DNA from: an uncultured Clostridia bacterium
Lineage (GTDB): Bacteria > Bacillota > Clostridia > Lachnospirales > CAG-274
Assembly: GCA_947627855.1 (NCBI GenBank)
Contig: CANQXR010000089.1
Coordinates: forward strand, 1-64,000
Direction of reading: 5' to 3'
Length of the DNA stretch: 64,000 bases
The stretch's first letter is position 1. Each line of letters opens with the position of its first letter. The notes under the pieces were generated by a model. The model was not told the origin of the DNA. It worked only from the letters and a program-made list of their open reading frames with translations, and did not search any database. Below are positions 5,068 through 59,291 of this stretch, in pieces. The position numbers and the translations under genes are program-made.

Positions 5068-6789
5068 ATGCTTAAAACTTTGATGGCGGAGATAAAGGAG
5101 TTCAAAAAATATTCTCTTTTGGCGCCTGCTTTTGTAATAATAGAGGTGTTTATGGAGATACTCATTCCTTTTCTTATGTCAAAAATTGTAGACAGAGGTA
5201 TAAATCAAAGGGATATAAAATCGGTTGCCGTTATAGGCGCAGTTATGCTTATCGCCGCTTTTATAAGCCTTACAGCCGGTATTCTCGCAGGTAATTATGC
5301 GGCTAAGGCGTCTATGGGCTTTGCCAAAAACCTCAGAGAAGCCTGTTTTAAAAACATACAGAAATTTTCATTTTCTAATCTTGACAAATATTCAACCTCC
5401 GGACTTATAACAAGGCTCACAACAGACGTTACGAATGTACAGAATTCATATATGATGATTATAAGAATGTGTGTGCGTTCTCCTCTTATGCTCGTATGCG
5501 CCTTTATGATGACCTGCATTATAAAGCCGTCCATATCCCTTGTTTATTTTGCCGCCATTATATTTCTCGGCGTGGCTCTTTTCTTTATAATGACGAGGGC
5601 GCATAAAATATTCAAGGAGGTATTCAGAAAATATGACGACCTGAATGCAAGCGTACAGGAAAATATAAGCGGCATAAGAACTGTAAAGGCTTTCGTAAAG
5701 GAGGACTTTGAAATAACAAAATTCAACATTGCGGCGGACAATGTATACAATATGTTTATGAGGGCTGAAAAGCTTCTCGTTTCAAATATGCCCGTAATGC
5801 AGTTTACGGTTTATGCATGCATACTTTCAATTTCGTGGGTCGGCGCACATATGATAGTCTCGGAAACACTCACCACGGGTCAGCTTATGAGCCTGTTTAC
5901 ATATACAATGAACATACTTATGAGCCTTATGATAATTTCCATGGCGTTTGTTATGATTTCAATGTCAAGGGCATCGGGAGAGCGTATTGCAGAGGTAATT
6001 AACGAAAAAACCGACCTTGCAGCTCCTCTTGACAGCATAAACACCGTAAAGGACGGCTCGGTATGCTTTAAAAATGTAAGCTTTGCCTATAAGAGCGGAA
6101 GAAATATGTGCCTTACAAATATCAGCCTTGAAATAAAATCGGGAGAAACAATAGGCATTATAGGCGGCACAGGCTCTTCAAAATCCACCCTTGTACAGCT
6201 TATTCCCAGACTTTACGATGCAACAGAGGGAGAGGTTATTGTAGGGGGCGTGAATGTAAAGAATTATGAGCTTAATGCCCTCAGAAGCAGCGTGGCTATG
6301 GTTCTGCAAAAAAATGTGCTCTTTTCGGGAACAGTGAGGGAAAATCTTTTATGGGGCGATATAAACGCCACCGATGAAGAAATACGGAGGGCTTGCCGAT
6401 ATGCTCAGGCAGACGATTTTATAATGGCTATGCCCGATGGCTATGACACAAGAATAGAACAGGGCGGCTCGAATGTTTCCGGCGGACAGAAGCAGAGGAT
6501 ATGTATTGCAAGGGCCTTGCTTATGAAGCCGAAAATACTTATTCTGGACGACTCCACCTCGGCTGTGGATACGAAAACAGATGCAATGATAAGGCAGGCT
6601 TTTGCGGAGGAGATTCCCGATACAACAAAAATAATAATCGCCCAAAGAATAACCTCCGTTCAGGACGCAGACAGGATAATAGTTATGAATGACGGTGAAA
6701 TAAACGGCTTCGGCACACACGAGGAGCTTCTTGCCTCCAATAATATTTACAGGGAAGTATTTGAATCTCAGATGAAAGGGGAGGAATAA
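5068..6789 (+). CDS. ABC exporter half-transporter (degenerate-site NBD)
   Basis: A 573-aa type IV ABC exporter subunit: six transmembrane helices (residues ~1-310), then an ATPase domain. The Walker A is GGTGSSKST, with Ser where Gly usually precedes Lys. The signature is NVSGGQKQR. Walker B is ILILDDSTSAVD, with Asp replacing the catalytic Glu. Such changes mark the partner with the non-catalytic Walker B in heterodimeric exporters. The next gene is the likely partner, two bases downstream. Confidence 0.93.
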   Translation: MLKTLMAEIKEFKKYSLLAPAFVIIEVFMEILIPFLMSKIVDRGINQRDIKSVAVIGAVMLIAAFISLTAGILAGNYAAKASMGFAKNLREACFKNIQKFSFSNLDKYSTSGLITRLTTDVTNVQNSYMMIIRMCVRSPLMLVCAFMMTCIIKPSISLVYFAAIIFLGVALFFIMTRAHKIFKEVFRKYDDLNASVQENISGIRTVKAFVKEDFEITKFNIAADNVYNMFMRAEKLLVSNMPVMQFTVYACILSISWVGAHMIVSETLTTGQLMSLFTYTMNILMSLMIISMAFVMISMSRASGERIAEVINEKTDLAAPLDSINTVKDGSVCFKNVSFAYKSGRNMCLTNISLEIKSGETIGIIGGTGSSKSTLVQLIPRLYDATEGEVIVGGVNVKNYELNALRSSVAMVLQKNVLFSGTVRENLLWGDINATDEEIRRACRYAQADDFIMAMPDGYDTRIEQGGSNVSGGQKQRICIARALLMKPKILILDDSTSAVDTKTDAMIRQAFAEEIPDTTKIIIAQRITSVQDADRIIVMNDGEINGFGTHEELLASNNIYREVFESQMKGEE

Positions 6790-47288: not shown

Positions 47289-47879
47289 GTGTGGGATAGT
47301 ATTAAACAATTCAAAAATTTGTTGCAGTCACTTGAGGAGAATGATATAATTAATGAGGACGATAACAACCTAATAGACGAAGATGACTCATTAGAGGAAG
47401 ATGACCTAACGGCTGTTGGCAGCATAGAAAGTATTAATTTCCCGATTGAACAGAGAAATACAGGTAAAGGACAGCCAAGTGCTATATTACATATGGGAAG
47501 ACCACTAAATAACCGCCAGCAGAAGTTGCTTGAACAGTTACCTTATTATAGAAGTGAGGTAATCGTTTCAAAGAATTCTGTAAACATGAAAGACCTATCA
47601 GCCCTTACAGCATATACAGGTGATGAATTTGCACTTTTTACCAAAGGTAACGAAAGACTTGTCGTAAGAGGCAATAGTTTTATGGTAGACATTGGCATAG
47701 AGCAGGCAATGGAATTAAATTCACAAGGGTATAAATGGAGTGGACATACACATCCAGGCATTGATGAAAATTGTTTGATGGCATCTCAAGGAGATAAAGA
47801 AATTTTGAGATGCTTTAGACAGGATATTTCATATATTTACAATTCATTAGGTGCACGAGTAGAATTTGGAAAGGAGTAA
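47289..47879 (+). CDS. JAMM/JAB-like protein with acidic N-terminus
   Basis: 196 aa from GTG 47289 (GGAGG nine bases upstream). The first ~55 residues are very acidic. The C-terminal half reads GYKWSGHTHPGIDENCLMAS, then QGDKEILRCFRQ: HTHP plus a downstream Ser-x-x-Asp is the zinc-binding arrangement of JAMM metalloproteases. It may be a toxin-like or deconjugating enzyme with the next gene as partner. Confidence 0.6.
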   Translation: MWDSIKQFKNLLQSLEENDIINEDDNNLIDEDDSLEEDDLTAVGSIESINFPIEQRNTGKGQPSAILHMGRPLNNRQQKLLEQLPYYRSEVIVSKNSVNMKDLSALTAYTGDEFALFTKGNERLVVRGNSFMVDIGIEQAMELNSQGYKWSGHTHPGIDENCLMASQGDKEILRCFRQDISYIYNSLGARVEFGKE

Positions 47880-47884
47880 AAAAT

Positions 47885-48154
47885 ATGAACAAACGATTTA
47901 AAGAATGGGAAAACGAAATAAAAAGGTATTGCGAGGAGAACAACCTTAGCTTTGAAAGGGCAAAGAAAATGTCAGGGTGCTACAATGAAAATATGTTGGT
48001 TCTTCAATATTTTGATCCAGAAAGCGAGAGTGTAAAATTGGGGCTTGGTTTGCGAGACGAAACCCCCATGCCTCCGGTTCTTTGGGTTTATAGAAGAAAG
48101 GACGGCTTAGAGTTTAGGCAGACAGAATGCACGCAGCAATATCTTGGTCTATAA
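47885..48154 (+). CDS. Partner protein of the JAMM-like gene
   Basis: 89 aa from ATG 47885 (AAAGGAG upstream), five bases after the JAMM-like gene. KEWENEIKRYCEENNLSFERAKKMSGCYNE opens it; the second half is beta-rich. The position suggests an immunity-like partner. Its N-terminal half is duplicated directly downstream. Confidence 0.62.
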   Translation: MNKRFKEWENEIKRYCEENNLSFERAKKMSGCYNENMLVLQYFDPESESVKLGLGLRDETPMPPVLWVYRRKDGLEFRQTECTQQYLGL

Positions 48155-48180
48155 TTTAAAGTTAGTAGGAAATGAAAAAT

Positions 48181-48342
48181 ATGAACAAACGATTTGAAGA
48201 ATGGAAGGATAAGATAAGGGAATATTGCGAGGAGAACAACCTTAGTTTTGAAAAGGTAAAGAAAATGTCAAAATGTTATAATGAAGACATCAACCACCCA
48301 TCGCTTAAAAACGATAGCTTGAAAAAGCTGGCAGTTGATTAA
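48181..48342 (+). pseudogene. Truncated duplicate of the partner protein
   Basis: 53 aa. The first ~35 residues (EEWKDKIREYCEENNLSF, then EKVKKMSKCYNED) match the 89-aa gene closely. It then diverges abruptly into INHPSLKNDSLKKLAVD and stops at 48340, where the IscB omega-RNA region begins. The IscB element appears to have landed in or next to this duplicate. Confidence 0.7.
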
Positions 48343-48565
48343 CCTAAGTTCTTCGAGAACTACGTTATACAGGAATATTATAGTTACCCATGGACGTTAT
48401 ACCTAATCTGTGGCTCTAAGGTAAGTGATTAAACAGTCCTGGCGGGTAGGGACAGTGTTGCTTACATACAAACCCCGTATAACATTGGCGAAGGTATATT
48501 ACAGCAGTATGCTGCTGTCTTACAGAGTAAAGCATACAAAAATTAAAAATCAATTTTATATGGAA
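48343..48565 (+). ncRNA. Putative IscB omega RNA (HEARO-like)
   Basis: A 220-base structured, non-coding stretch directly upstream of iscB, where omega RNA is expected. Hairpins include AGTTCT/AGAACT near 48349 and CAGCAG/CTGCTG near 48512. GTTATAC near 48363 and GTATAAC near 48478 can pair at long range. TCCTGGCGGGTAGGGA resembles a motif I associate with omega RNAs. The guide would be the bases just 5' of the scaffold; its exact border is not defined here. Confidence 0.72.
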
Positions 48566-48579
48566 AGGAGTGCCTTTGT

Positions 48580-50295
48580 GTGGTATATGTTTTAAACATT
48601 GATGGAAAGCCTCTCATGCCTACAGAAAGGCACGGGAAAGTCAGAAGATTATTAAGAGATGGAGAAGCAAAAGTAATAAAATGCTGTCCATTTACTATAC
48701 AGTTACTATATGAAACAACAGATTTCGTACAGGAAGTATCTCTTGGGGTAGATGCCGGTAGTAAATACATTGGTATTTCAGCAACAACCAAAGATACAGT
48801 TTTGTACGAATCAGAGATAAGATTAAGAAATGATATAGTAGATCTTTTATCTACCAGAAGAGCATTAAGAAGGACAAGAAGGAACAGACTCCGTTACAGA
48901 AAGCCCAGGTTCAATAATAGAGTCAGAACTAAGCACAGAGGATGGCTTGCACCTTCCGTTGAACAGAAGATACAAACACATCTTAGTACTATAGAGAAGG
49001 TCTACAAAATATTACCAGTTTCAAAAATTATTATTGAAGTAGCAAGTTTTGATATTCAAAGAATAAAAGACCCAGATATCAAGAGCAAGGAATATCAGCA
49101 AGGAGAACAGGCGGGTTCTTGGAATGTAAGAGAGTATGTCTTACGAAGAGATGATTATACCTGCCAGTGTTGTAATGGGGCTTCCGGAGATTCAATATTA
49201 ATGGTACATCATATAGAAAGCAGAAAAACAGGTGGTAATTCACCCAACAATCTGATAACTCTTTGCAAAACTTGTCACGAAGGATATCATAGAGGAAAGA
49301 TAAATTTACCTTTCAACATAAAAAGAGGTATGAAATTTAATGATGCAACATTTATGAATATCATGAGACCGACCCTCTGTAATAGATTACAAGAGATGTA
49401 CTCAAATGTATATATAACATATGGATATATCACAAAGAATATTAGGATAGAAAACAAATTACCTAAGAGTCATCGTGTAGATGCAAGGTGCATTAGTGGA
49501 AATCCAACCGCAAAACCTCTCGATTATTATTTCTATCAGAAGAAAGTTCGTTGTCATAATAGACAGATTCACAAAGCCCATATTTTGCACGGAGGTATCA
49601 GAAAAGAAAACCAAGCACCTTATGTTGTAAAAGGTTTTAGACTATTTGATAAAGTTTTATTTGAGAAAAAAGAATATTTCATTTTCGGCAGAAGACTTAA
49701 TGGGTATTTTGATATACGAGATTTGTTTGGAAACAAAGTCAATAATGGCAGCATTTCATATAAGAAGTTAACTCTTGTAGAAAAGCGCAAGCACTTTTTG
49801 ATGGAGATAATAAGCAACAAACGATTTTCATATCAACCCAATCAACAAATCCCAATCCAATACAATACATTAAATATCAGGAAATTATACATAACTAATT
49901 TTCTGTCTAAATATATAGCTGTAGGTGCTGAGATAAGTATCTTTACAAATGGAATTCAGCAGACAGATTATAGTTTCTGTTATATGACAGATCTTTATAA
50001 TATCTGTGTTACACACCAGATCAGAAATACAGTTCCTGCATTATTTTGGTTATCAGATAATAATAATACACTATATCCTTACCTAAGTATAGCTACACAA
50101 TTGAACAATCAGATATTACCAATAGAAGATTATTTTATTCTAACAGGTGCTAATGATATGCTCTTATATGTGGATTTCAACCTACCACAAATACAAACTT
50201 ATCTAAAGATGGTATATGATAATCATCAAGCATATCTTAATTCGGGTATTATGTCAATTCTATTACCAAGCACCAAACCGGTAGCACCAATCTAA
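48580..50295 (+). CDS. iscB: IscB RNA-guided nuclease with extended C-terminus
   Basis: 571 aa from GTG 48580 (GGAAAGGAG nine bases upstream). The PLMP domain (DGKPLMPTERHGKVRRLL) opens it. RuvC-I is LGVDAGSKYIGIS; an Arg-rich bridge helix (RRALRRTRRNRLRYRKPRF) follows; RuvC-II is IIIEVASFD. The HNH domain is CQCC ... MVHHIESRKTGGNSPNNLITLC; RuvC-III is HRVDARCISG. The domain up to about residue 410 is standard. A further ~160 residues not typical of IscB follow. No TnpA is present, so it is not autonomous. Confidence 0.93.
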   Translation: MVYVLNIDGKPLMPTERHGKVRRLLRDGEAKVIKCCPFTIQLLYETTDFVQEVSLGVDAGSKYIGISATTKDTVLYESEIRLRNDIVDLLSTRRALRRTRRNRLRYRKPRFNNRVRTKHRGWLAPSVEQKIQTHLSTIEKVYKILPVSKIIIEVASFDIQRIKDPDIKSKEYQQGEQAGSWNVREYVLRRDDYTCQCCNGASGDSILMVHHIESRKTGGNSPNNLITLCKTCHEGYHRGKINLPFNIKRGMKFNDATFMNIMRPTLCNRLQEMYSNVYITYGYITKNIRIENKLPKSHRVDARCISGNPTAKPLDYYFYQKKVRCHNRQIHKAHILHGGIRKENQAPYVVKGFRLFDKVLFEKKEYFIFGRRLNGYFDIRDLFGNKVNNGSISYKKLTLVEKRKHFLMEIISNKRFSYQPNQQIPIQYNTLNIRKLYITNFLSKYIAVGAEISIFTNGIQQTDYSFCYMTDLYNICVTHQIRNTVPALFWLSDNNNTLYPYLSIATQLNNQILPIEDYFILTGANDMLLYVDFNLPQIQTYLKMVYDNHQAYLNSGIMSILLPSTKPVAPI

Positions 50296-50335
50296 GCGAA
50301 GTTGAAAACTAAAAACAAAAAGGAGATATAACAAA

Positions 50336-50968
50336 ATGTCAAGCTGGACTTATATAAACGGAACAATTTCAGTTGAATCTTTAGGTAACAGTCAACCCCA
50401 AATGCAATATATTCTTGATACTGTATTGGCTCATCTCCCCAAGGTCAGTGGTTCTGAAAAGGATATGGAAATATATGTCATCAGAAAAAAGGGGTGGGGT
50501 ACGTCAAGCCCTTATGATGAGTTTGAGCAATGGAGCAACCTCGGTAATGGAAAAGCTTATGGAAATAGTTTTCCTGAATTTGAAATGCAGAGAGAATATA
50601 TACTTGTTGTTGATGGTTCACTTAGAAATACAAAATTTGAGGAGACTGTTAGAGCATTTCAGAATTGGCTTTGCAGACTGGCAAAAAGAATTATTGTAAA
50701 CGATGTATTTGTAAGAATAGAAGATGGTTTGGACAAGTCTACAATTGTCCAGAACAAGAATGATGTTTATGGAAATATGTTTGAATATCCAAGCTGGGAT
50801 CTTCGCAACAAAGACAAAATCCCATCATGGAGTGAGTTCATGTATTATGAAAGTGTAAAAGGCAGTAGCTATCCGTTATTACTTGCATACAAATATTTCA
50901 GAGATGATGAAGTTGATAAGGAAGTAAAATGCAGAATGTCTTATCGTAAGGAACAAACAAAGAATTAA
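50336..50968 (+). CDS. Unknown protein downstream of IscB
   Basis: 210 aa, soluble, from ATG 50336 with AAAGGAG upstream. Aromatic-rich (SSWTYINGTISVES, RKKGWGTSSPYDEFEQW). No family recognised. Forty bases after iscB on the same strand. Confidence 0.72.
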   Translation: MSSWTYINGTISVESLGNSQPQMQYILDTVLAHLPKVSGSEKDMEIYVIRKKGWGTSSPYDEFEQWSNLGNGKAYGNSFPEFEMQREYILVVDGSLRNTKFEETVRAFQNWLCRLAKRIIVNDVFVRIEDGLDKSTIVQNKNDVYGNMFEYPSWDLRNKDKIPSWSEFMYYESVKGSSYPLLLAYKYFRDDEVDKEVKCRMSYRKEQTKN

Positions 50969-51020
50969 AGATTAAAATGTCATAAGTTTAACTAACTTTT
51001 TGGGTTATGGAGGTGATGTT

Positions 51021-51191
51021 TTGAACCCTGTACTTATATTTTTAATTATTTTTCTTGCAGTTATTATTTGGTTTGTGTTGTCCTTCATGTTTGTACCGAT
51101 AGGGCGGCTTATAGTCAGAATAATAACAAATACCCACAAAAAGATTATTTACAAAGAAGGGACGGATGAAGATGAAAACAAAGATAAGTAA
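51021..51191 (+). CDS. Small membrane protein
   Basis: 56 aa from TTG 51021 after GGAGGTGAT. One long hydrophobic stretch (residues ~4-30) and a charged end. Function unknown. Confidence 0.6.
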   Translation: MNPVLIFLIIFLAVIIWFVLSFMFVPIGRLIVRIITNTHKKIIYKEGTDEDENKDK

Positions 51192-51399
51192 AATCGGATC
51201 AATTTTTTAGCAGTTGTAATTTGTATTTTTATAGGCGAGCTTATTGCTACGAGAGAGTTACAGCAGGATATACAGGTGTGACATACAATATCTATACACA
51301 GAAAGTAGCAATTAAATACCCGGTAACAAACGTACTCAGCGATAAAAAACTAAAACTTAATAATTATTCTATTGATATATTTAAAATGAAAAACCTATG
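51165..51399 (+). pseudogene. Frameshifted signal-peptide-type small gene
   Basis: ATG 51165 opens MKMKTKISKIGSIF, then stops at TAG because of a six-T run. One more T would continue into FLAVVICIFIGELIATREL, and a second shift into VTAGYTGVTYNIYTQKVAIK, ending at 51397. It looks like one secreted or membrane protein broken by two indels, unless a sequencing error occurred at the T-run. The rest of the gap to 51574 shows nothing. Confidence 0.5.
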
Positions 51400-51573
51400 A
51401 CGTTATAATAATGCAGTAAATTTTACAAATATAAGTACTAACAAAAAGGAAGAACACAAGCAGCTGTCCAGAAGTGGAAAATAAAGGTAAGAAGCTCACA
51501 TTTGGATAACTGTTTAGAACACAAACAACCATTCTAACACTTAATTAAGAACATAACAAGGAAGTGATGAAAA

Positions 51574-52329
51574 TTGAGATTGTACAATGATAATAGTATG
51601 AATGTGTTTAAGACAATCGCAGACAACAGTATTGATTTGATTGTAACTGACCCACCTTATAAAATCATTGCAGGTGGTGTTACTACAGAGGTTAAGAAGA
51701 ATGAATGTGGTGGTTCACTCCGGAGAAGAGATATTTCAGGTAGTCCAACAATCGGAAACAAATGGGTAAATAAGAGCATTGGCGATGTTCCTTTAGCGAT
51801 AAGGCAGGGCAAACTGTTCTCCAATAATGATATAACTTTTTCAGAGTGGTTGCCAGAGGTCTACCGTGTTCTCAAAGACGGTTGCCATTGTTATATTATG
51901 ATAAATGGCAGAAATCTCAAAGATTTACAAACTGAAGCCGAAAAAGCAGGTTTTAAATTCGTTAACCTACTTGTTTGGAAGAAAAATAACAAAACTCCAA
52001 ATGGTTATTATATGCAGCAATGCGAGTTCATTCTGCTTTTAAGGAAAGGCAAAGCAAGATACATAAACAACCGCGGTACAAGTAACTGCTTCGAACTTGC
52101 TAATATTATTGGCAAGAAAAAGCACCCCACCGAGAAGCCTATAGAGCTTATGAAAATATTTGTTGAGAATTCGTCAAATGTTGGAGACACTGTACTTGAC
52201 CCATTCATGGGTGTAGGTACAACAGGTGCTGCCTGTATGGCATTACAGAGAAATTTCATAGGCATTGAAATCGACGAAAAGTATTTCAACATTGCAAATG
52301 AAAGAATTTTTTCAAGAAAAGCTTGTTAA
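51574..52329 (+). CDS. DNA methyltransferase (beta-type N6/N4)
   Basis: 251 aa from TTG 51574 (AAGGAAG upstream). The catalytic motif IVTDPPYKIIAGG is near residue 25, and HPTEKPIELMKIF ... GDTVLDPFMGVGTTGAACM, the SAM-binding FxGxG, is near the C-terminus, which is the beta-class order. It has no recognised restriction partner nearby, so it is an orphan methylase. Confidence 0.88.
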   Translation: MRLYNDNSMNVFKTIADNSIDLIVTDPPYKIIAGGVTTEVKKNECGGSLRRRDISGSPTIGNKWVNKSIGDVPLAIRQGKLFSNNDITFSEWLPEVYRVLKDGCHCYIMINGRNLKDLQTEAEKAGFKFVNLLVWKKNNKTPNGYYMQQCEFILLLRKGKARYINNRGTSNCFELANIIGKKKHPTEKPIELMKIFVENSSNVGDTVLDPFMGVGTTGAACMALQRNFIGIEIDEKYFNIANERIFSRKAC

Positions 52330-52357
52330 TTATAATACTTGTAGGAGGTGACACATA

Positions 52358-52624
52358 ATGCAGAAGTTTTATTTCGTCTATAATGGTCTCTATGCCTATC
52401 CATACGATGGTGGCTGGGTTGAAGTTATAGCTGAAAACATAGAGCAAGCCAAATCTATCTATGGTGTCATCTTTGGGACAAACAGTGATGGTTCGGCGAA
52501 CTATGCCGATGTATTTACAGAAGAAGAATTCATCAAAACTGCTATGTTCCGAGATGGGATTCTTGGAGCTAAATGTCACGAAGTGATAAGCATGCAAAGA
52601 GTCGTTAAAGACCAGAAAAGCTGA
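52358..52624 (+). CDS. Unknown protein (88 aa)
   Basis: From ATG 52358 with GGAGGTGA upstream, 28 bases after the methylase gene. FYFVYNGLYAYPYDGGWVEV and IEQAKSIYGVIFG suggest a small alpha/beta protein. No family recognised. The following 250 bases up to element copy 5 hold nothing visible. Confidence 0.62.
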   Translation: MQKFYFVYNGLYAYPYDGGWVEVIAENIEQAKSIYGVIFGTNSDGSANYADVFTEEEFIKTAMFRDGILGAKCHEVISMQRVVKDQKS

Positions 52625-53551: not shown

Positions 53552-54076
53552 ATGAAATTAACAGAAACGGAAACAGTAAAGACTACACCTGAATACGGTA
53601 AAATAAAATGGCTGATAGGCATACAAAATGTAGTTAACATAATTGCTTTAACATTACTTACAGTGGCTGTTTTATTAATACCTGTTGTGATTATATCCTT
53701 TATCCACTCATGTTTTATGGAGCATACTTATGAAGTTGCACAAGGATACGTAGAGGAGTTACATCTTGATGAAGAGTCAAATTCTAAGTTTCCCATTATC
53801 TCTTATCAAGTTGATGGTGAAACCTATAAATATCAGAGCAAGTTAGGGGTTGACACAATGCAGCCAGGAGACAAGGCAGAGGTTTTGTATAAAGCTGACA
53901 ACCCAAATGAAGCTACTATACGGCAACAAATCACTTTGGTTTATGAATTGATTGCAAATGTCATAGGATGTTGTGCTGGCGTTGCCCTAATCCTTTTCTT
54001 CATGTCTGCTATTTTTGCAGCCATAGTTGCTACAGTATCAGAAGAGGCAAAAGAGGTAAAGACGGTTAATATTTAA
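53552..54076 (+). CDS. DUF3592-like membrane protein, pair 0 first gene
   Basis: 174 aa from ATG 53552. Transmembrane helices near residues 30-53 and 130-155 enclose a soluble domain with SKFPIISYQVDGETYKYQ and VLYKADNPNEATI, as in DUF3592 proteins. Ordinary AAAGGAA site at normal spacing, unlike its later duplicates. It is the most divergent member of the family found here. Confidence 0.7.
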   Translation: MKLTETETVKTTPEYGKIKWLIGIQNVVNIIALTLLTVAVLLIPVVIISFIHSCFMEHTYEVAQGYVEELHLDEESNSKFPIISYQVDGETYKYQSKLGVDTMQPGDKAEVLYKADNPNEATIRQQITLVYELIANVIGCCAGVALILFFMSAIFAAIVATVSEEAKEVKTVNI

Positions 54077-54098
54077 CGAATAAAGAAGGAGTGATTAC

Positions 54099-54585
54099 AT
54101 GAATATACTATATGACTTGAACCAACTATGTATCCAGGTGGTATTCACTGTAAAGATCTTGACGTGTATTTTTACTTTTTTTATTATCTTGGGTCTTATA
54201 GCTGATCTGTGGTGCAAACCTCCAGGAAACCTTATTTGCAAGATAGGTAAGAATACTACAGATGATCTTACAGATGATGAGTTTAATAATAAGAAGAAAC
54301 ATAATTGACTTCACAACCGAACCGAGAACAGACAAAACACTATCTGTAGTTTCATATCAAGTAAATGAGCATGAATATATTTCAAAGGGAGAATGTTATT
54401 ATATTGATGAGGACATGAAACTAGGCAGGACAACACTTGTATTTTACAAAGCAAATGATCCAGAAGATGTATCACTGGATACTCTTTTTCTTGATAGACC
54501 GACATTAATAGGTGCATTGCTTGTGATATTTGCAGTTATCTTATTTATAGTCTCTATTATAAATTATGCAACAGGTATTATTTAA
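54099..54585 (+). pseudogene. DUF3592-like membrane protein, pair 0 second gene, frameshifted
   Basis: The first frame (54099-54308) has the N-terminal helix and ends after DEFNNKKKHN. A second frame (open through 54585) supplies RRNIIDFTTEPRTDK ... VFYKANDPEDV and the last helix. Joined, they match the intact second genes at 56333, 57562 and 58767. A one-base indel in the A-rich 54285-54300 stretch explains it. Confidence 0.65.
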
Positions 54586-54596
54586 ACAAGAAATGA

Positions 54597-54626
54597 GGAA
54601 GCAAGCGAATATCCTCACTTGCTTCC
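54597..54626 (+). terminator. Hairpin after DUF3592 pair 0
   Basis: GGAAGCAAG (54597-54605) pairs with CTTGCTTCC (54618-54626). The sequence around it (AAACAAGAAATGAGGAAGCAAGCGAA) resembles the leaders of the later DUF3592 units, so it is probably a leader relic. No T-run follows. The 256 bases after it up to 54882 show nothing. Confidence 0.5.
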
Positions 54627-54882
54627 CCGATAAATATGGGTCGTAATTATTATTACCGAGTAGAGTCAATTGATGGTTACTTTACATTTTTAAGATTTAG
54701 ATTATCTCAAACATTTCAGATGTCCAGAATGATACACTGAAGTTTTGTACTAATTTTGTAAAACGAATTTCCATAGCATTTGTCGGCTTTCTTAGTGAAT
54801 AGTGGTATCACTCTGTCTTATTCAGTGACATATCTACCAATGCTGCAATCTGATCCCTACGACCATAGGTTACTGCTGTAAT

Positions 54883-55146
54883 TCACACGACTTTCTTTTC
54901 TTCATCAACCAGATAGTAAACAAGAAAATTTTTAATGGGCATTTTGCGGATTCCTTTAGTATGCCATGGCTCTTCTTCTGTAAGAGGATATCTTGTTGGC
55001 ATAGTATCCAGCTTTTTGATTTCATATTGCAAGGTATCTGCCCATTTCCGTGCGGTTTCCGGCTCTAACAGAATTTTAGAAATATATTGTATTGTTTCCC
55101 CAATTTGATTGACTGCCTGTATGGCCAACTTCACTTCATAATGCAT
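54883..55146 (-). CDS. RelE/ParE-type toxin
   Basis: 87 aa from ATG 55146, one base after the antitoxin stop. AVNQIGETIQYISKIL, ARKWADTLQYEIKKLDTMPTRYP and KNFLVYYLVDEEKKVV give the ParE/RelE fold order. Such toxins cleave mRNA at the ribosome or inhibit gyrase. They are neutralised by the preceding gene product. Confidence 0.85.
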   Translation of the reverse strand: MHYEVKLAIQAVNQIGETIQYISKILLEPETARKWADTLQYEIKKLDTMPTRYPLTEEEPWHTKGIRKMPIKNFLVYYLVDEEKKVV

Positions 55147-55147
55147 A

Positions 55148-55444
55148 TCAAATACCCTCACGTATTTTGTTAAAGGCCTCATCAACAGATAGTCCCTTAC
55201 TGGATTTCGCCTGATTGTAGCCTTTCTCCATTATTGAGTCAAACTGTTCGTCAGTCAGACTGTCTCTTGTGGGCAGCTTGGGTACAGTAAGAGAATATGG
55301 AATGCCGCCTGTCATAATAATTTGTCTGTATAAGGTATCAATCAAAACTGAAACGGGAAGTCCAATTTTGTCTAAAACCGCTTCGGCCTGTCGCTTGATT
55401 TCCGGTTGAACACGGGCTGTTACATTTGCACTTTTTGTTGCCAT
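55148..55444 (-). CDS. RelB/DinJ-type antitoxin
   Basis: 98 aa from ATG 55444. SANVTARVQPEIKRQAEAVLDKIGLPVSVLIDTLYRQI is a ribbon-helix-helix DNA-binding domain. PYSLTVPKLPTRDSL and the acidic C-terminus are typical of RelB/DinJ. It should bind the toxin and repress its own promoter. Confidence 0.88.
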   Translation of the reverse strand: MATKSANVTARVQPEIKRQAEAVLDKIGLPVSVLIDTLYRQIIMTGGIPYSLTVPKLPTRDSLTDEQFDSIMEKGYNQAKSSKGLSVDEAFNKIREGI

Positions 55445-55470
55445 GGTAAACACCTACCTTTCTATCCTTG

Positions 55471-55499
55471 ATTATACCATATTGTATGGCTAATTGCAA
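55471..55499 (-). promoter_or_regulatory. RelB promoter with embedded operator
   Basis: On the minus strand TTGCAA (55499-55494), 17 bases, TATAAT (55476-55471). The spacer contains the inverted repeat CCATA-TTG-TATGG (55477-55489), well placed for autorepression by the antitoxin complex. Confidence 0.85.
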
Positions 55500-55823
55500 T
55501 ACAATATTCAGAAGTTTACAGATAATTTATGGATATGCTTCACCATTGATTTTTGTAGGTTTTGACATCGGCTAAGAACTATACCTAATATGAAAACCAA
55601 TACAAACTTTTCAACAATTATACTCTGGCTCATGCAAAAATCTACCCAAGATATTAATTTGACCCAACCTTAAAATAAGACAAATTTCAAAATATTACAG
55701 TTACTATAGTAAATTAGAATTTAAAATTAAAACAAACAACAAGAAAGGAGAAAGCAAGCGATTCACTTATCTATAGATTTGAATATCCTCGCTTGTAGAA
55801 CATATATGGAAAAAGGAGAAACA

Positions 55824-56336
55824 ATGGAAAAAGAAAATACAAAACCAGTAAAGGATGAGTATGGTAGATTAAAACTGCTGATGGGTGTAAGAAACGTTGC
55901 CTATTTGTGCTATCGTACAATACTTGTGGTATTTATTATATTGATACCTGTTATGGTTGTATCCAAGGTTAACTCCAACTCGAAAGTTGAATCTTATGAG
56001 ATTGCCCAAGGATATGTAGAGGAATTGCATGTAGATGAAGAAACTAATTCTAAATTCCCAATTATTTCATATCAGGTTGGTGATGAAACATATGAATATC
56101 AGTGTGATTTAAAGGTTACAACAATGCATCCAGGTGAGAAAGTAGATGTTCTGTACCGAGCCAACAATCCCAGAGAAGCTACTGTGCAATTACAACTTAC
56201 TTTATTTTCAGAACTAATTTGGAAAGTTGGGCTGTATTGTATAGGTGCTACCATGGGTTTTTATATCATATTTATGGGCTTTCAAGGTTTGGCATCAGAC
56301 GAACTGAAAAGAGTAAGGGGGTTTACTTATCGATGA
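55824..56336 (+). CDS. DUF3592-like membrane protein, unit 1 first gene
   Basis: 170 aa from ATG 55824 (its own AAAGGAG at 55813); ATG 55806 is an alternative. PVKDEYGRLKLLMGV, a transmembrane helix (~25-48), YEIAQGYVEELHVDEETNSKFPIISYQVGDETYEYQCDLKV and VLYRANNPREAT, then a second helix. The second gene overlaps its stop (ATGA), so the two proteins probably form a membrane complex. Confidence 0.75.
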   Translation: MEKENTKPVKDEYGRLKLLMGVRNVAYLCYRTILVVFIILIPVMVVSKVNSNSKVESYEIAQGYVEELHVDEETNSKFPIISYQVGDETYEYQCDLKVTTMHPGEKVDVLYRANNPREATVQLQLTLFSELIWKVGLYCIGATMGFYIIFMGFQGLASDELKRVRGFTYR

Positions 56337-56821
56337 ATACATTAATATTTCTTACGACGGATACTCTTTCATTAGGAATATTGGAGTTTCCAAATATAAT
56401 TACGATAGTATTACATTTGTCTAAAGTAGTGTTAGTGATGATGATACTATTAGGCTTACTTTCGATCGTAGGAGTAATGTCCTGTTGGAAAACCTACGGT
56501 AGCTTTGTCAGCGTTCCAGGGGATATAATCGATTTTGAACTTTTAGATATATCAAATTCGGGTGATCGAGTAAGAAGACCTGTTGTGGCATATATAGTGG
56601 ATGGAAAAAGACATATTATGAAAGGGAAGGAAACTACTGACAAGCCAAAACAGATAAGGATGAAAGGTGTAAATGTATTCTACAATATATACAATCCCGA
56701 GGAGGCGTATGAAGAATCAGAACTGTTTCTCGGACTGGCAATAAGTAATGTGTGCCTTATGCTAATTATAATCTTTTCATTTGTATTATGTACAATAAAG
56801 TACATAACAGGTGCTTTCTAA
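56333..56821 (+). CDS. DUF3592-like membrane protein, unit 1 second gene
   Basis: 162 aa. Hydrophobic segments near residues 25-50 and 135-158; between them YGSFVSVPGDIIDFELLD, RRPVVAYIVDGKRH and VFYNIYNPEEAYEESELF. It ends CTIKYITGAF, a motif conserved in all second genes. Start codon overlaps the stop of the first gene. Confidence 0.73.
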   Translation: MNTLIFLTTDTLSLGILEFPNIITIVLHLSKVVLVMMILLGLLSIVGVMSCWKTYGSFVSVPGDIIDFELLDISNSGDRVRRPVVAYIVDGKRHIMKGKETTDKPKQIRMKGVNVFYNIYNPEEAYEESELFLGLAISNVCLMLIIIFSFVLCTIKYITGAF

Positions 56822-57022
56822 ACTAAGAACCAACGTAAAATCTACTCAGAATATTGATTTGACCCAACCTTAAAATAAGACAAATTTTAAAATGTTACAA
56901 TTACTATAGTAAATTAGAATTTAAAATTAAAACAAACAACAAGAAAGGAGAAAGCAAGCGATTCTTCACACAACTCCAGTAGAGCAGGAGGGGATTTGCA
57001 TGCTTGCAAACATATAAATCCA

Positions 57023-57565
57023 GTGAATCGTACAAAGACAATGTCAGGAGAAGATATAAAACCGGTAAAGGATGAGTATGGTAGATTAAAGCTATTGTTA
57101 GGTGTAGGAAATATCACTTATATGTGTTATCAGACACTAATTGGAGTGATTATAGTCCTGCTACTTGTTATGATTGCATCTAAATTTTATTTCAATTCAA
57201 AAGAGGTATCTTACGAGGTTACCAAAGGATATATAGAGGAATTACATACTGATAGAGAAACTGGTTCTAAGTTTCCAGTCATTTCATATCAGGTTGATGA
57301 CCAGACTTATGAATATCAGTGTGACCTCAAAGTTACAACAACACAACCAGGTGATGAGGTAGAGGTTCTGTATAAAGCTAACAATCCAAGTGAGGCAACA
57401 ACAAAAATACAATTAACTCTTTTTTCCAAACTGGTTTGGAAAGCTATACTATATTGTACTGGTGTCACTGTAATTTTATATTTCATCTTTAGAAGCTTTA
57501 GAGGTTTGGCTTTTGATGAATTAAATAGGATAAAATTTAATAGAATCAAGAGAGGTACTAAATGA
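57023..57565 (+). CDS. DUF3592-like membrane protein, unit 2 first gene
   Basis: About 180 aa. The start is unclear: TTG 56996, GTG 57023 and ATG 57041 are in frame and none has a normal site. The AAAGGAG at 56944 is followed by a hairpin (GCAAGC with GCTTGC at 57002-57007). PVKDEYGRLKLLLGVGN, SKFPVISYQVDDQTYEYQC and VLYKANNPSEATT match unit 1. Confidence 0.68.
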   Translation: MNRTKTMSGEDIKPVKDEYGRLKLLLGVGNITYMCYQTLIGVIIVLLLVMIASKFYFNSKEVSYEVTKGYIEELHTDRETGSKFPVISYQVDDQTYEYQCDLKVTTTQPGDEVEVLYKANNPSEATTKIQLTLFSKLVWKAILYCTGVTVILYFIFRSFRGLAFDELNRIKFNRIKRGTK

Positions 57566-58059
57566 TGAACGTATTAACATTATTTTTGGCTGGTACTCTT
57601 TCATTTGAAACACTGGAATTTCCAAGCATAAGTACAATAGTATCACATTTGTCTGAAATGATGCTACCAGTGTTGATAATATTAGGAGTATTTTGGGTTA
57701 TTTTAATAATAGTCGACTGGGAAACATATAGTGAGTTCATAGGTATTCGGGGGTATATAGTTGACTTTGAACTATCAGTTTCAGAGATAACAGGGCAACC
57801 TAAAACATCAGGCAGACCTGTTGTGGAATATACAGCGCTTGATAGTAAAAGCTATAGAGTAAGAGGGGACGAGTGTCCTTACATGTCAGAACAAGAAAGG
57901 GAGAAGGGAGAGACTGTATACTATAACATATACCTACCTCAAAAGGCATATGATGGTTCATTGTTTTTTGGTGGTGTGACTTGTGGTCTATTTTTTGTGC
58001 TAACCCTAATATTCTCATTTATATACATCACGATAAAGTACACAACAGGCGCTTTCTAA
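57562..58059 (+). CDS. DUF3592-like membrane protein, unit 2 second gene
   Basis: 165 aa; overlaps the preceding stop by ATGA. EFIGIRGYIVDFELSVSEITGQPKTSGRPVVEYTA and VYYNIYLPQKAYD with flanking helices; ends TIKYTTGAF. Very close to the unit 3 second gene. Confidence 0.73.
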   Translation: MMNVLTLFLAGTLSFETLEFPSISTIVSHLSEMMLPVLIILGVFWVILIIVDWETYSEFIGIRGYIVDFELSVSEITGQPKTSGRPVVEYTALDSKSYRVRGDECPYMSEQEREKGETVYYNIYLPQKAYDGSLFFGGVTCGLFFVLTLIFSFIYITIKYTTGAF

Positions 58060-58242
58060 TTTAGAACTACGTAAAATCCGTCCAAGATATTGATTTGACC
58101 TAACATTAAAATAAGACAAATTTCAAAATCTTAAAGTTACTATAGTAAATTAGAATTGATTTTAAATAAACAAACAACAAGAAAGGGGAAAGCAAGCGAT
58201 TTACTTATCTTTAGATGTGAATATCCTCGCTTGTGGAACATA

Positions 58243-58770
58243 ATGGAAAGAGAAGAAACAATAGAGAAAGAAAATACAAAACCAGTGAAGGACAGACGCG
58301 GTAGATTACAACTGTTCTTAGGTGTAGGAAATATTTTTGTCGTGTGGTCTTTAAATTTAGTCTTCGTGATTTTTATTTTATTAGCAGCTATGTTGTTTAC
58401 CAGGATTGATGCCAATCTTAAAATTCACTCTTATGAGGCTACCGTAGGCTACGTAGAGAAATTCCGTATTAGTGGAGAAAATGAGTCTAAATTTCCAGTC
58501 ATATCGTACCAAGTTGATGACGAAACTTACGAATATCAGTGCGATCTCAAGGTTACAACATTACAACCAGGTGACGAGGTAGAGGTTTTGTATAAGGCTG
58601 ACGATCCAAGTGAAGCAACGACAAAATTACGATTGCTTCTTTGGCCAAAACTAATTTGGAAAGCTATAAAATATTGTATTGGTGCTGCCATAGTTTGTGG
58701 CATCATGGCTCTTATTTTCAACTTTTTATCTTTTTCAGAATTTACAGAAATGAATGGAGGTACTAAATGA
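58243..58770 (+). CDS. DUF3592-like membrane protein, unit 3 first gene
   Basis: 175 aa from ATG 58243 (MEREETIEKENTKPVKD). The second Met of unit 1 is Ile here and the internal ribosome-binding site is lost. The best AAAGGGG lies at 58182, separated from the start by a conserved hairpin. KFPVISYQVDDETYEYQC and VLYKADDPSEATTKL are conserved. Confidence 0.72.
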   Translation: MEREETIEKENTKPVKDRRGRLQLFLGVGNIFVVWSLNLVFVIFILLAAMLFTRIDANLKIHSYEATVGYVEKFRISGENESKFPVISYQVDDETYEYQCDLKVTTLQPGDEVEVLYKADDPSEATTKLRLLLWPKLIWKAIKYCIGAAIVCGIMALIFNFLSFSEFTEMNGGTK

Positions 58771-59291
58771 TGGGTATTTCAACACTACTTATGGCTAATG
58801 ACCTTTATTTCAAAACTTTAGAGCTTCCGAGTTTGGGTACGATAATATCACATATCCACGAGATGGTGTGGCCGATATTAGTAATATTAGGAGTATTATA
58901 TATCGTTGAAGTAATAGCCGATTGGAGTATATACAGTGAATTTGTTTCTACTGATGGAAAGGTAATTGACTTTGAACATTCAATTTCAGAGAAAACAGGC
59001 TTACCTACTAAATCAGGTAGACCTGTTGTGGAATATACAGCATTCGATGGAAAAACCTATACTATAAAAGGTGAAGAACGTTCCTATATGTCAGAACGTG
59101 AGAGGGAGATGTCTGCGAACATGGTATATTACAATATACACTACCCAGAGGAGGCATATATATATGAAGAGTCAGATGACATGAGTTCAAATATATATTT
59201 CAGAGGTTTAGTTTGTAGTTTACCTTTTATATTTACGACAATCTTCGTATTTATATACATCACAATAAAGTACATAACAGGTGCTTTCTAA
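58767..59291 (+). CDS. DUF3592-like membrane protein, unit 3 second gene
   Basis: 174 aa; overlaps the preceding stop. EFVSTDGKVIDFEHSISEKTGLPTKSGRPVVEYTAFDGK and VYYNIHYPEEAYIYEE; ends TIKYITGAF. Element copy 6 begins nine bases after its stop. Confidence 0.73.
   Translation: MMGISTLLMANDLYFKTLELPSLGTIISHIHEMVWPILVILGVLYIVEVIADWSIYSEFVSTDGKVIDFEHSISEKTGLPTKSGRPVVEYTAFDGKTYTIKGEERSYMSEREREMSANMVYYNIHYPEEAYIYEESDDMSSNIYFRGLVCSLPFIFTTIFVFIYITIKYITGAF

What the first reader, a model, noticed from the sequence alone, without database searches (positions are those of the whole stretch)
48343..50295. IscB locus with adjacent omega RNA
PLMP, split RuvC, Arg-rich bridge helix, HNH and the HxxDA motif are all present with catalytic residues in place. 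A 220-base structured non-coding stretch lies exactly upstream. This looks like a complete RNA-guided nuclease and guide locus without its own transposase.
Basis: partly seen in the sequence, partly recalled or inferred. Interest (0 to 1): 0.78.

Follow-up and report, generated by a model that had tools for sequence, protein, structure and literature searches.

The report
Stranded IscB nuclease with guide RNA
This is an ordinary gut-bacterial IscB/HEARO element, an RNA-guided DNA-cutting protein with its guide RNA, sitting inside a duplicated phage-type immunity gene; its right end is gone, so it can probably no longer jump, and its protein now runs on into an unrelated 162-residue tail.

Summary
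The core claim holds. A full-length Rfam HEARO (omega RNA) match lies at 48289-48502 (126 bits, cut-off 83), and an IscB ORF follows at 48580-50295 with all catalytic positions intact. Both are single copy in this genome. 'Complete' needs correcting. Seven close relatives (59-71% identical) end 4-10 residues after the position of codon 409; this ORF diverges exactly there and continues for 162 residues with no detectable homologue in any database searched. The hairpin-plus-ATGA right end seen in four relatives is absent. The element sits at codon 36/37 of the second copy of a tandem 89-aa gene. In other genomes this gene follows a MuF-type (phage minor capsid) toxin-like domain, so it is probably an immunity gene. 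The 3' part of that copy is not found in the genome. Best reading: an IscB-HEARO insertion lost its right end and right flank by deletion, fusing the IscB frame to a downstream gene remnant. It is immobile, but guide RNA and nuclease core are intact. The guide (48273-48288) has no other genomic match with 0-1 mismatch. No intact Y1 transposase was found in the draft genome. New member of a known kind.

The parts
48273..48288 (+). predicted 16-nt guide of the omega RNA (ATGTTATAATGAAGAC), derived from the interrupted gene
   Evidence: bases directly 5' of the first pair of the HEARO P1 helix; 16-nt length taken from known IscB biology; unique in own genome at up to 1 mismatch
48289..48502 (+). 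HEARO / omega RNA scaffold, full-length model match
   Evidence: RF02033, 126.1 bits, model 1-211/211; the same RNA lies at the same place in all 13 relatives' loci scanned
48580..49806 (+). IscB nuclease body (PLMP, RuvC-I D58, bridge helix, RuvC-II E153, HNH H210/H211/N224, RuvC-III H298/D301, C-terminal TAM-interacting part)
49807..50295 (+). 162-residue in-frame tail replacing the last few residues of IscB and its stop; probably the remnant of a downstream gene
   Evidence: relatives match only residues 1-409; no homologue; open for 162 codons, 0 of 20000 shuffles open
48181..48290 (+). 5' part (codons 1-36/37) of the second copy of a MuF-type putative immunity gene, interrupted by the element
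   Evidence: 70% aa identity to copy 1 over residues 1-37, ending at the HEARO start; 132-nt direct repeat ends at 48290
47885..48154 (+). intact first copy (89 aa) of the putative immunity gene
   Evidence: homologues of 47-64% identity in seven other genomes
47289..47879 (+). probable cognate toxin-like domain (HTHPG...), which is the C-terminal domain of MuF-type phage proteins in relatives
   Evidence: 59-66% identical to the sequence just upstream of the immunity homologue in five genomes; two of these carry PF06152 or PF04233

Best explanation
An IscB-HEARO mobile element of the IS200/IS605-like OMEGA class inserted at codon 36/37 of the duplicated copy of a MuF-type immunity gene, and the 5' flank became the guide of its omega RNA. 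A later deletion removed the right end of the element, the rest of the interrupted gene and the start of a downstream gene, and joined IscB in frame after codon 409 to that gene's remnant. Shown: RNA, nuclease core, insertion junction, missing right end, absence of the rest of copy 2. Inferred: that a deletion caused it, that the RNP is still made, and that it would cut DNA matching the guide next to a suitable TAM, i.e. the uninterrupted allele. Without its right end the element should no longer be a transposition substrate, so it is a stranded nuclease-guide pair.
For: HEARO 126 bits, full length. IscB family match and invariant catalytic residues; OgeuIscB structures are the best matches by sequence (E 1e-48) and by fold. 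Copy 2 matches copy 1 up to 48290 and stops where HEARO begins; the rest of copy 2 is not in the window or genome. Four of seven relatives have a TCCTCC...GG..CC-type hairpin 11-16 nt before ATGA after their IscB stop, and no such motif occurs in window 49700-52500. All seven relatives continue with (R/T)R right where the window diverges. The tail has no homologue in 48 family, 392 order and 391 class genomes, nor in the viral, phage and plasmid collections. Y1 transposase only damaged or partial.
Against: The original right flank and the source gene of the tail were not found, so the deletion is inferred, and an assembly join at 49806 cannot be excluded (no reads). The closest relative, L004, also lacks a clear right-end hairpin by the same pattern, so loss of the hairpin alone is weak evidence. 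The empty site could not be read. A decayed, inactive RNP is not excluded.
Confidence: 0.75

Rival explanations
1. The 162-residue tail is a functional C-terminal domain that modifies or regulates this IscB.
For: The frame is kept for 162 codons, the IscB body shows no decay (9 private changes at otherwise conserved columns, relatives 2-27), and codon-position GC of the tail is coding-like (0.37/0.30/0.23).
Against: No homologue of the tail or of the fusion anywhere searched; no confident fold (block pLDDT under 45); the break removes a conserved ER(R) end and the right end of the element.
Confidence: 0.08
2. The locus has the history given in the best explanation but is a decaying pseudo-element that makes no active RNP (this overlaps with the best explanation and differs only on present activity).
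For: Right end lost, single copy, no intact Y1 transposase in the draft genome, last residues of the TAM-interacting part replaced.
Against: The omega RNA is full length and the nuclease core has no stop, frameshift or catalytic loss.
Confidence: 0.35
3. The fusion is an artefact of assembly joining two sequences at 49806.
For: Draft genome in 89 contigs; tail and missing right half of copy 2 found nowhere.
Against: The junction keeps an open frame for 162 codons (0 of 20000 shuffles of the tail are open) and lies well inside a 69.8-kb contig.
Confidence: 0.07

Closest known systems
IscB / HEARO OMEGA systems (OgeuIscB, PDB 7xht, 8csz; HEARO MG35-1)
   Same: PLMP, RuvC split by bridge helix and HNH, C-terminal TAM-interacting part, omega RNA directly 5' of the ORF, usually no adjacent TnpA (PMC9755519)
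   Different: About 409 residues of IscB instead of 496, with a foreign 162-residue tail and no right element end
IscB of Finegoldia magna plasmid (NC_010371) and of gut MAGs and viral contigs L004-L007, L014-L016
   Same: 59-71% identical over residues 1-409; HEARO RNA at the same place upstream in the loci scanned
   Different: L004-L007 and L014-L016 have proteins of 409-421 aa; four have a right-end hairpin followed by ATGA
MuF polymorphic toxin-immunity modules of temperate phages (PMC5576092)
   Same: Host gene of the insertion: a small ORF directly after a toxin-like domain which in relatives is fused to PF06152 or PF04233
   Different: Here the toxin-like domain is separate from the phage part, the immunity-like gene is duplicated and one copy is interrupted

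Membership tests
IscB (OMEGA nuclease) | IscB family profile match with PLMP, RuvC and HNH | tested here: met
   NF040563 356 bits over cut-off 175, aa 2-305; PF14239 207.7 bits
IscB (OMEGA nuclease) | catalytic residues of RuvC and HNH | tested here: met
   D58, E153, H210, H211, N224, H298, D301 invariant in 11 homologues
IscB (OMEGA nuclease) | omega/HEARO RNA directly 5' of the ORF | tested here: met
   RF02033 at 48289-48502, 126.1 bits
IscB (OMEGA nuclease) | RNA-guided DNA cleavage with a 3' TAM | not testable with these tools
   needs a biochemical assay; right flank (TAM) lost
HEARO mobile element | left end: element begins at HEARO and interrupts a gene | tested here: met
   132-nt repeat of copy 1/copy 2 ends at 48290
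HEARO mobile element | right-end hairpin and adjoining ATGA-type target | tested here: not met
   present in 4 of 7 relatives, absent from window 49700-52500
IS200/IS605 transposon | Y1 transposase in cis, or an intact copy in the genome | tested here: not met
   none in the window; the only three matches lie on C46 and C24, two with in-frame stops and one covering only domain positions 59-111; draft genome

The most novel reading that the evidence does not exclude
A domesticated, non-mobile IscB-omega RNA pair with an acquired C-terminal domain, whose guide is fixed on a phage MuF-type immunity gene and which therefore acts against incoming phages or alleles carrying the uninterrupted gene.
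Probability: 0.05. Interest if true: 0.65.

Novelty: new member of a known kind. Interest (0 to 1): 0.27.

Why it matters
It adds an IscB-HEARO locus with a readable insertion junction (guide and interrupted gene known) and a lost right end. It shows how such nucleases can be stranded: guide RNA and nuclease remain after mobility is lost. If the pair is still active it would be a natural test of whether immobile OMEGA nucleases keep a host-level role.

Tried and rejected
Tail as a known domain: no Pfam, NCBIfam or significant PHROG match. Weak matches of tail residues 82-141 to VWA/YfbK-like lipoproteins in several genomes and one phage contig (29-32% identity; E 0.6 against the phage collection) were not supported by any profile and are treated as chance. 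Best class-level tail hits (L028, L030) overlap unrelated genes. Structure prediction of the full protein gave no confident tail. The neighbouring intact copy 1 as a present-day target: by direct reading it differs from the guide at 5 of 16 positions, two of them within the last three bases on the TAM side, so cleavage is unlikely. Other guide targets in the genome: only 2-mismatch hits, at control level. Single-sequence folding of the RNA is uninformative.

Full report
Observation. The ORF at 48580-50295 (GTG start, 571 aa) is an IscB: NCBIfam guided_IscB 356 bits, Pfam RRXRR and HNH, and PDB sequence matches to OgeuIscB with E 1e-48. Foldseek on an AlphaFold2 model also ranks IscB structures first, although the model is poor overall (mean pLDDT 55). 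The residues expected for RuvC and HNH (D58, E153, H210, H211, N224, H298, D301) are invariant over 11 homologues. The non-coding stretch is a full-length HEARO RNA, RF02033, 48289-48502, 126.1 bits against a cut-off of 83. It is the only copy in the genome.

What differs from a complete locus. Relatives found in gut MAGs, viral contigs and plasmids (59-71% identity; Clostridia, Bacilli, Bacteroidota, a Methanobrevibacter MAG, Finegoldia plasmids) all match residues 1-409 only. Their proteins are 409-421 aa long and end 4-10 residues after the position of window codon 409. At the DNA level most read GAR-AGG-AG at that point, where the window reads GAG-ATAATAAGC. In four of seven a hairpin of the form TCC(T/C)C...GG..CC follows the stop and is followed after 11-16 nt by ATGA, the apparent right border; no such motif occurs at 49700-52500 of the window. 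The window ORF therefore lost its last residues, its stop and the right end of the element.

The tail. Residues 410-571 are open for 162 codons (0 of 20000 composition-preserving shuffles are) and have coding-like GC by codon position. They have no homologue in 48 genomes of the family, 392 of the order and 391 of the class, in IMG/VR, phages or plasmids, and no Pfam or NCBIfam match. A 12-mer, AACAAACGATTT, occurs exactly three times in the window: at the starts of the two immunity-gene copies (47888, 48184) and 10 nt after the break (49816); shuffles give none. This hints that the tail belonged to another gene with a related start, but the rest of the tail is not similar to that gene, so it stays unexplained.

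Where it inserted. A 132-nt direct repeat (78%) joins 47863-47994 and 48159-48290 and ends where HEARO begins. Copy 1 encodes an intact 89-aa protein with homologues in seven other genomes; copy 2 stops after codon 36/37, and its remaining part is absent from the window and genome. In five genomes the homologue lies directly after a domain 59-66% identical to the product of window ORF 47289-47879. In two of them that domain is fused to Phage_min_cap2 or Phage_Mu_F, the two MuF domains of temperate-phage polymorphic toxins, whose small downstream ORFs are thought to encode immunity proteins (PMC5576092). The interrupted gene is therefore most likely a duplicated MuF-type immunity gene (inference).

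Mechanism. By established IscB biology (PMC9755519; OgeuIscB structures; the 16-nt guide length and the 3' TAM are from my own knowledge) the omega RNA carries the bases directly 5' of the scaffold as guide: ATGTTATAATGAAGAC, 48273-48288. It has no other match in the genome with 0 or 1 mismatch, so the host is not a likely target of its own nuclease. The natural target would be the uninterrupted copy 2. The TAM cannot be read because the right flank is lost. No intact Y1 transposase was found: three matches on other contigs, two with in-frame stops and one partial. The locus is thus most likely an immobilised IscB-omega RNA pair; whether it is still active cannot be decided from sequence.

Novelty. 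IscB with HEARO RNA and without adjacent TnpA is the usual arrangement (PMC9755519). The in-frame fusion and lost right end are individual features of this copy. I file it as a new member of a known kind, with low to moderate interest.

Noticed in passing
L007:3757-3772 and 5329-5465 (Methanobrevibacter thaueri MAG): A related HEARO-IscB lies directly upstream of an FMN riboswitch of a ribB-like gene, and its predicted guide (ATGTTCTCAGGGCGGG) shares 12 nt with the conserved start of that riboswitch, which is followed by GTG; the element may have inserted into a second riboswitch copy, or its guide may target the riboswitch.
   Followed up: partly
window 49816-49827: AACAAACGATTT, identical to the starts of both immunity-gene copies (47888, 48184), occurs 10 nt after the IscB break and nowhere else in the window.
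   Followed up: partly
window 34000-59000: Accessory region rich in toxin/antitoxin and phage-related genes: RnlB antitoxin-like (45702), DUF3990 (46476), DNA methylases (34636, 51574), zeta-toxin-like NTPases by eye (39957, 40854), and repeated pairs of small membrane proteins (53552-59291).
   Followed up: partly
L004-L007, L014-L016: The same IscB subfamily (59-71% identity) occurs in Clostridia, Bacilli, Bacteroidota and an archaeal MAG, mostly from gut sources, suggesting transfer across phyla and domains; MAG contamination not excluded.
   Followed up: no
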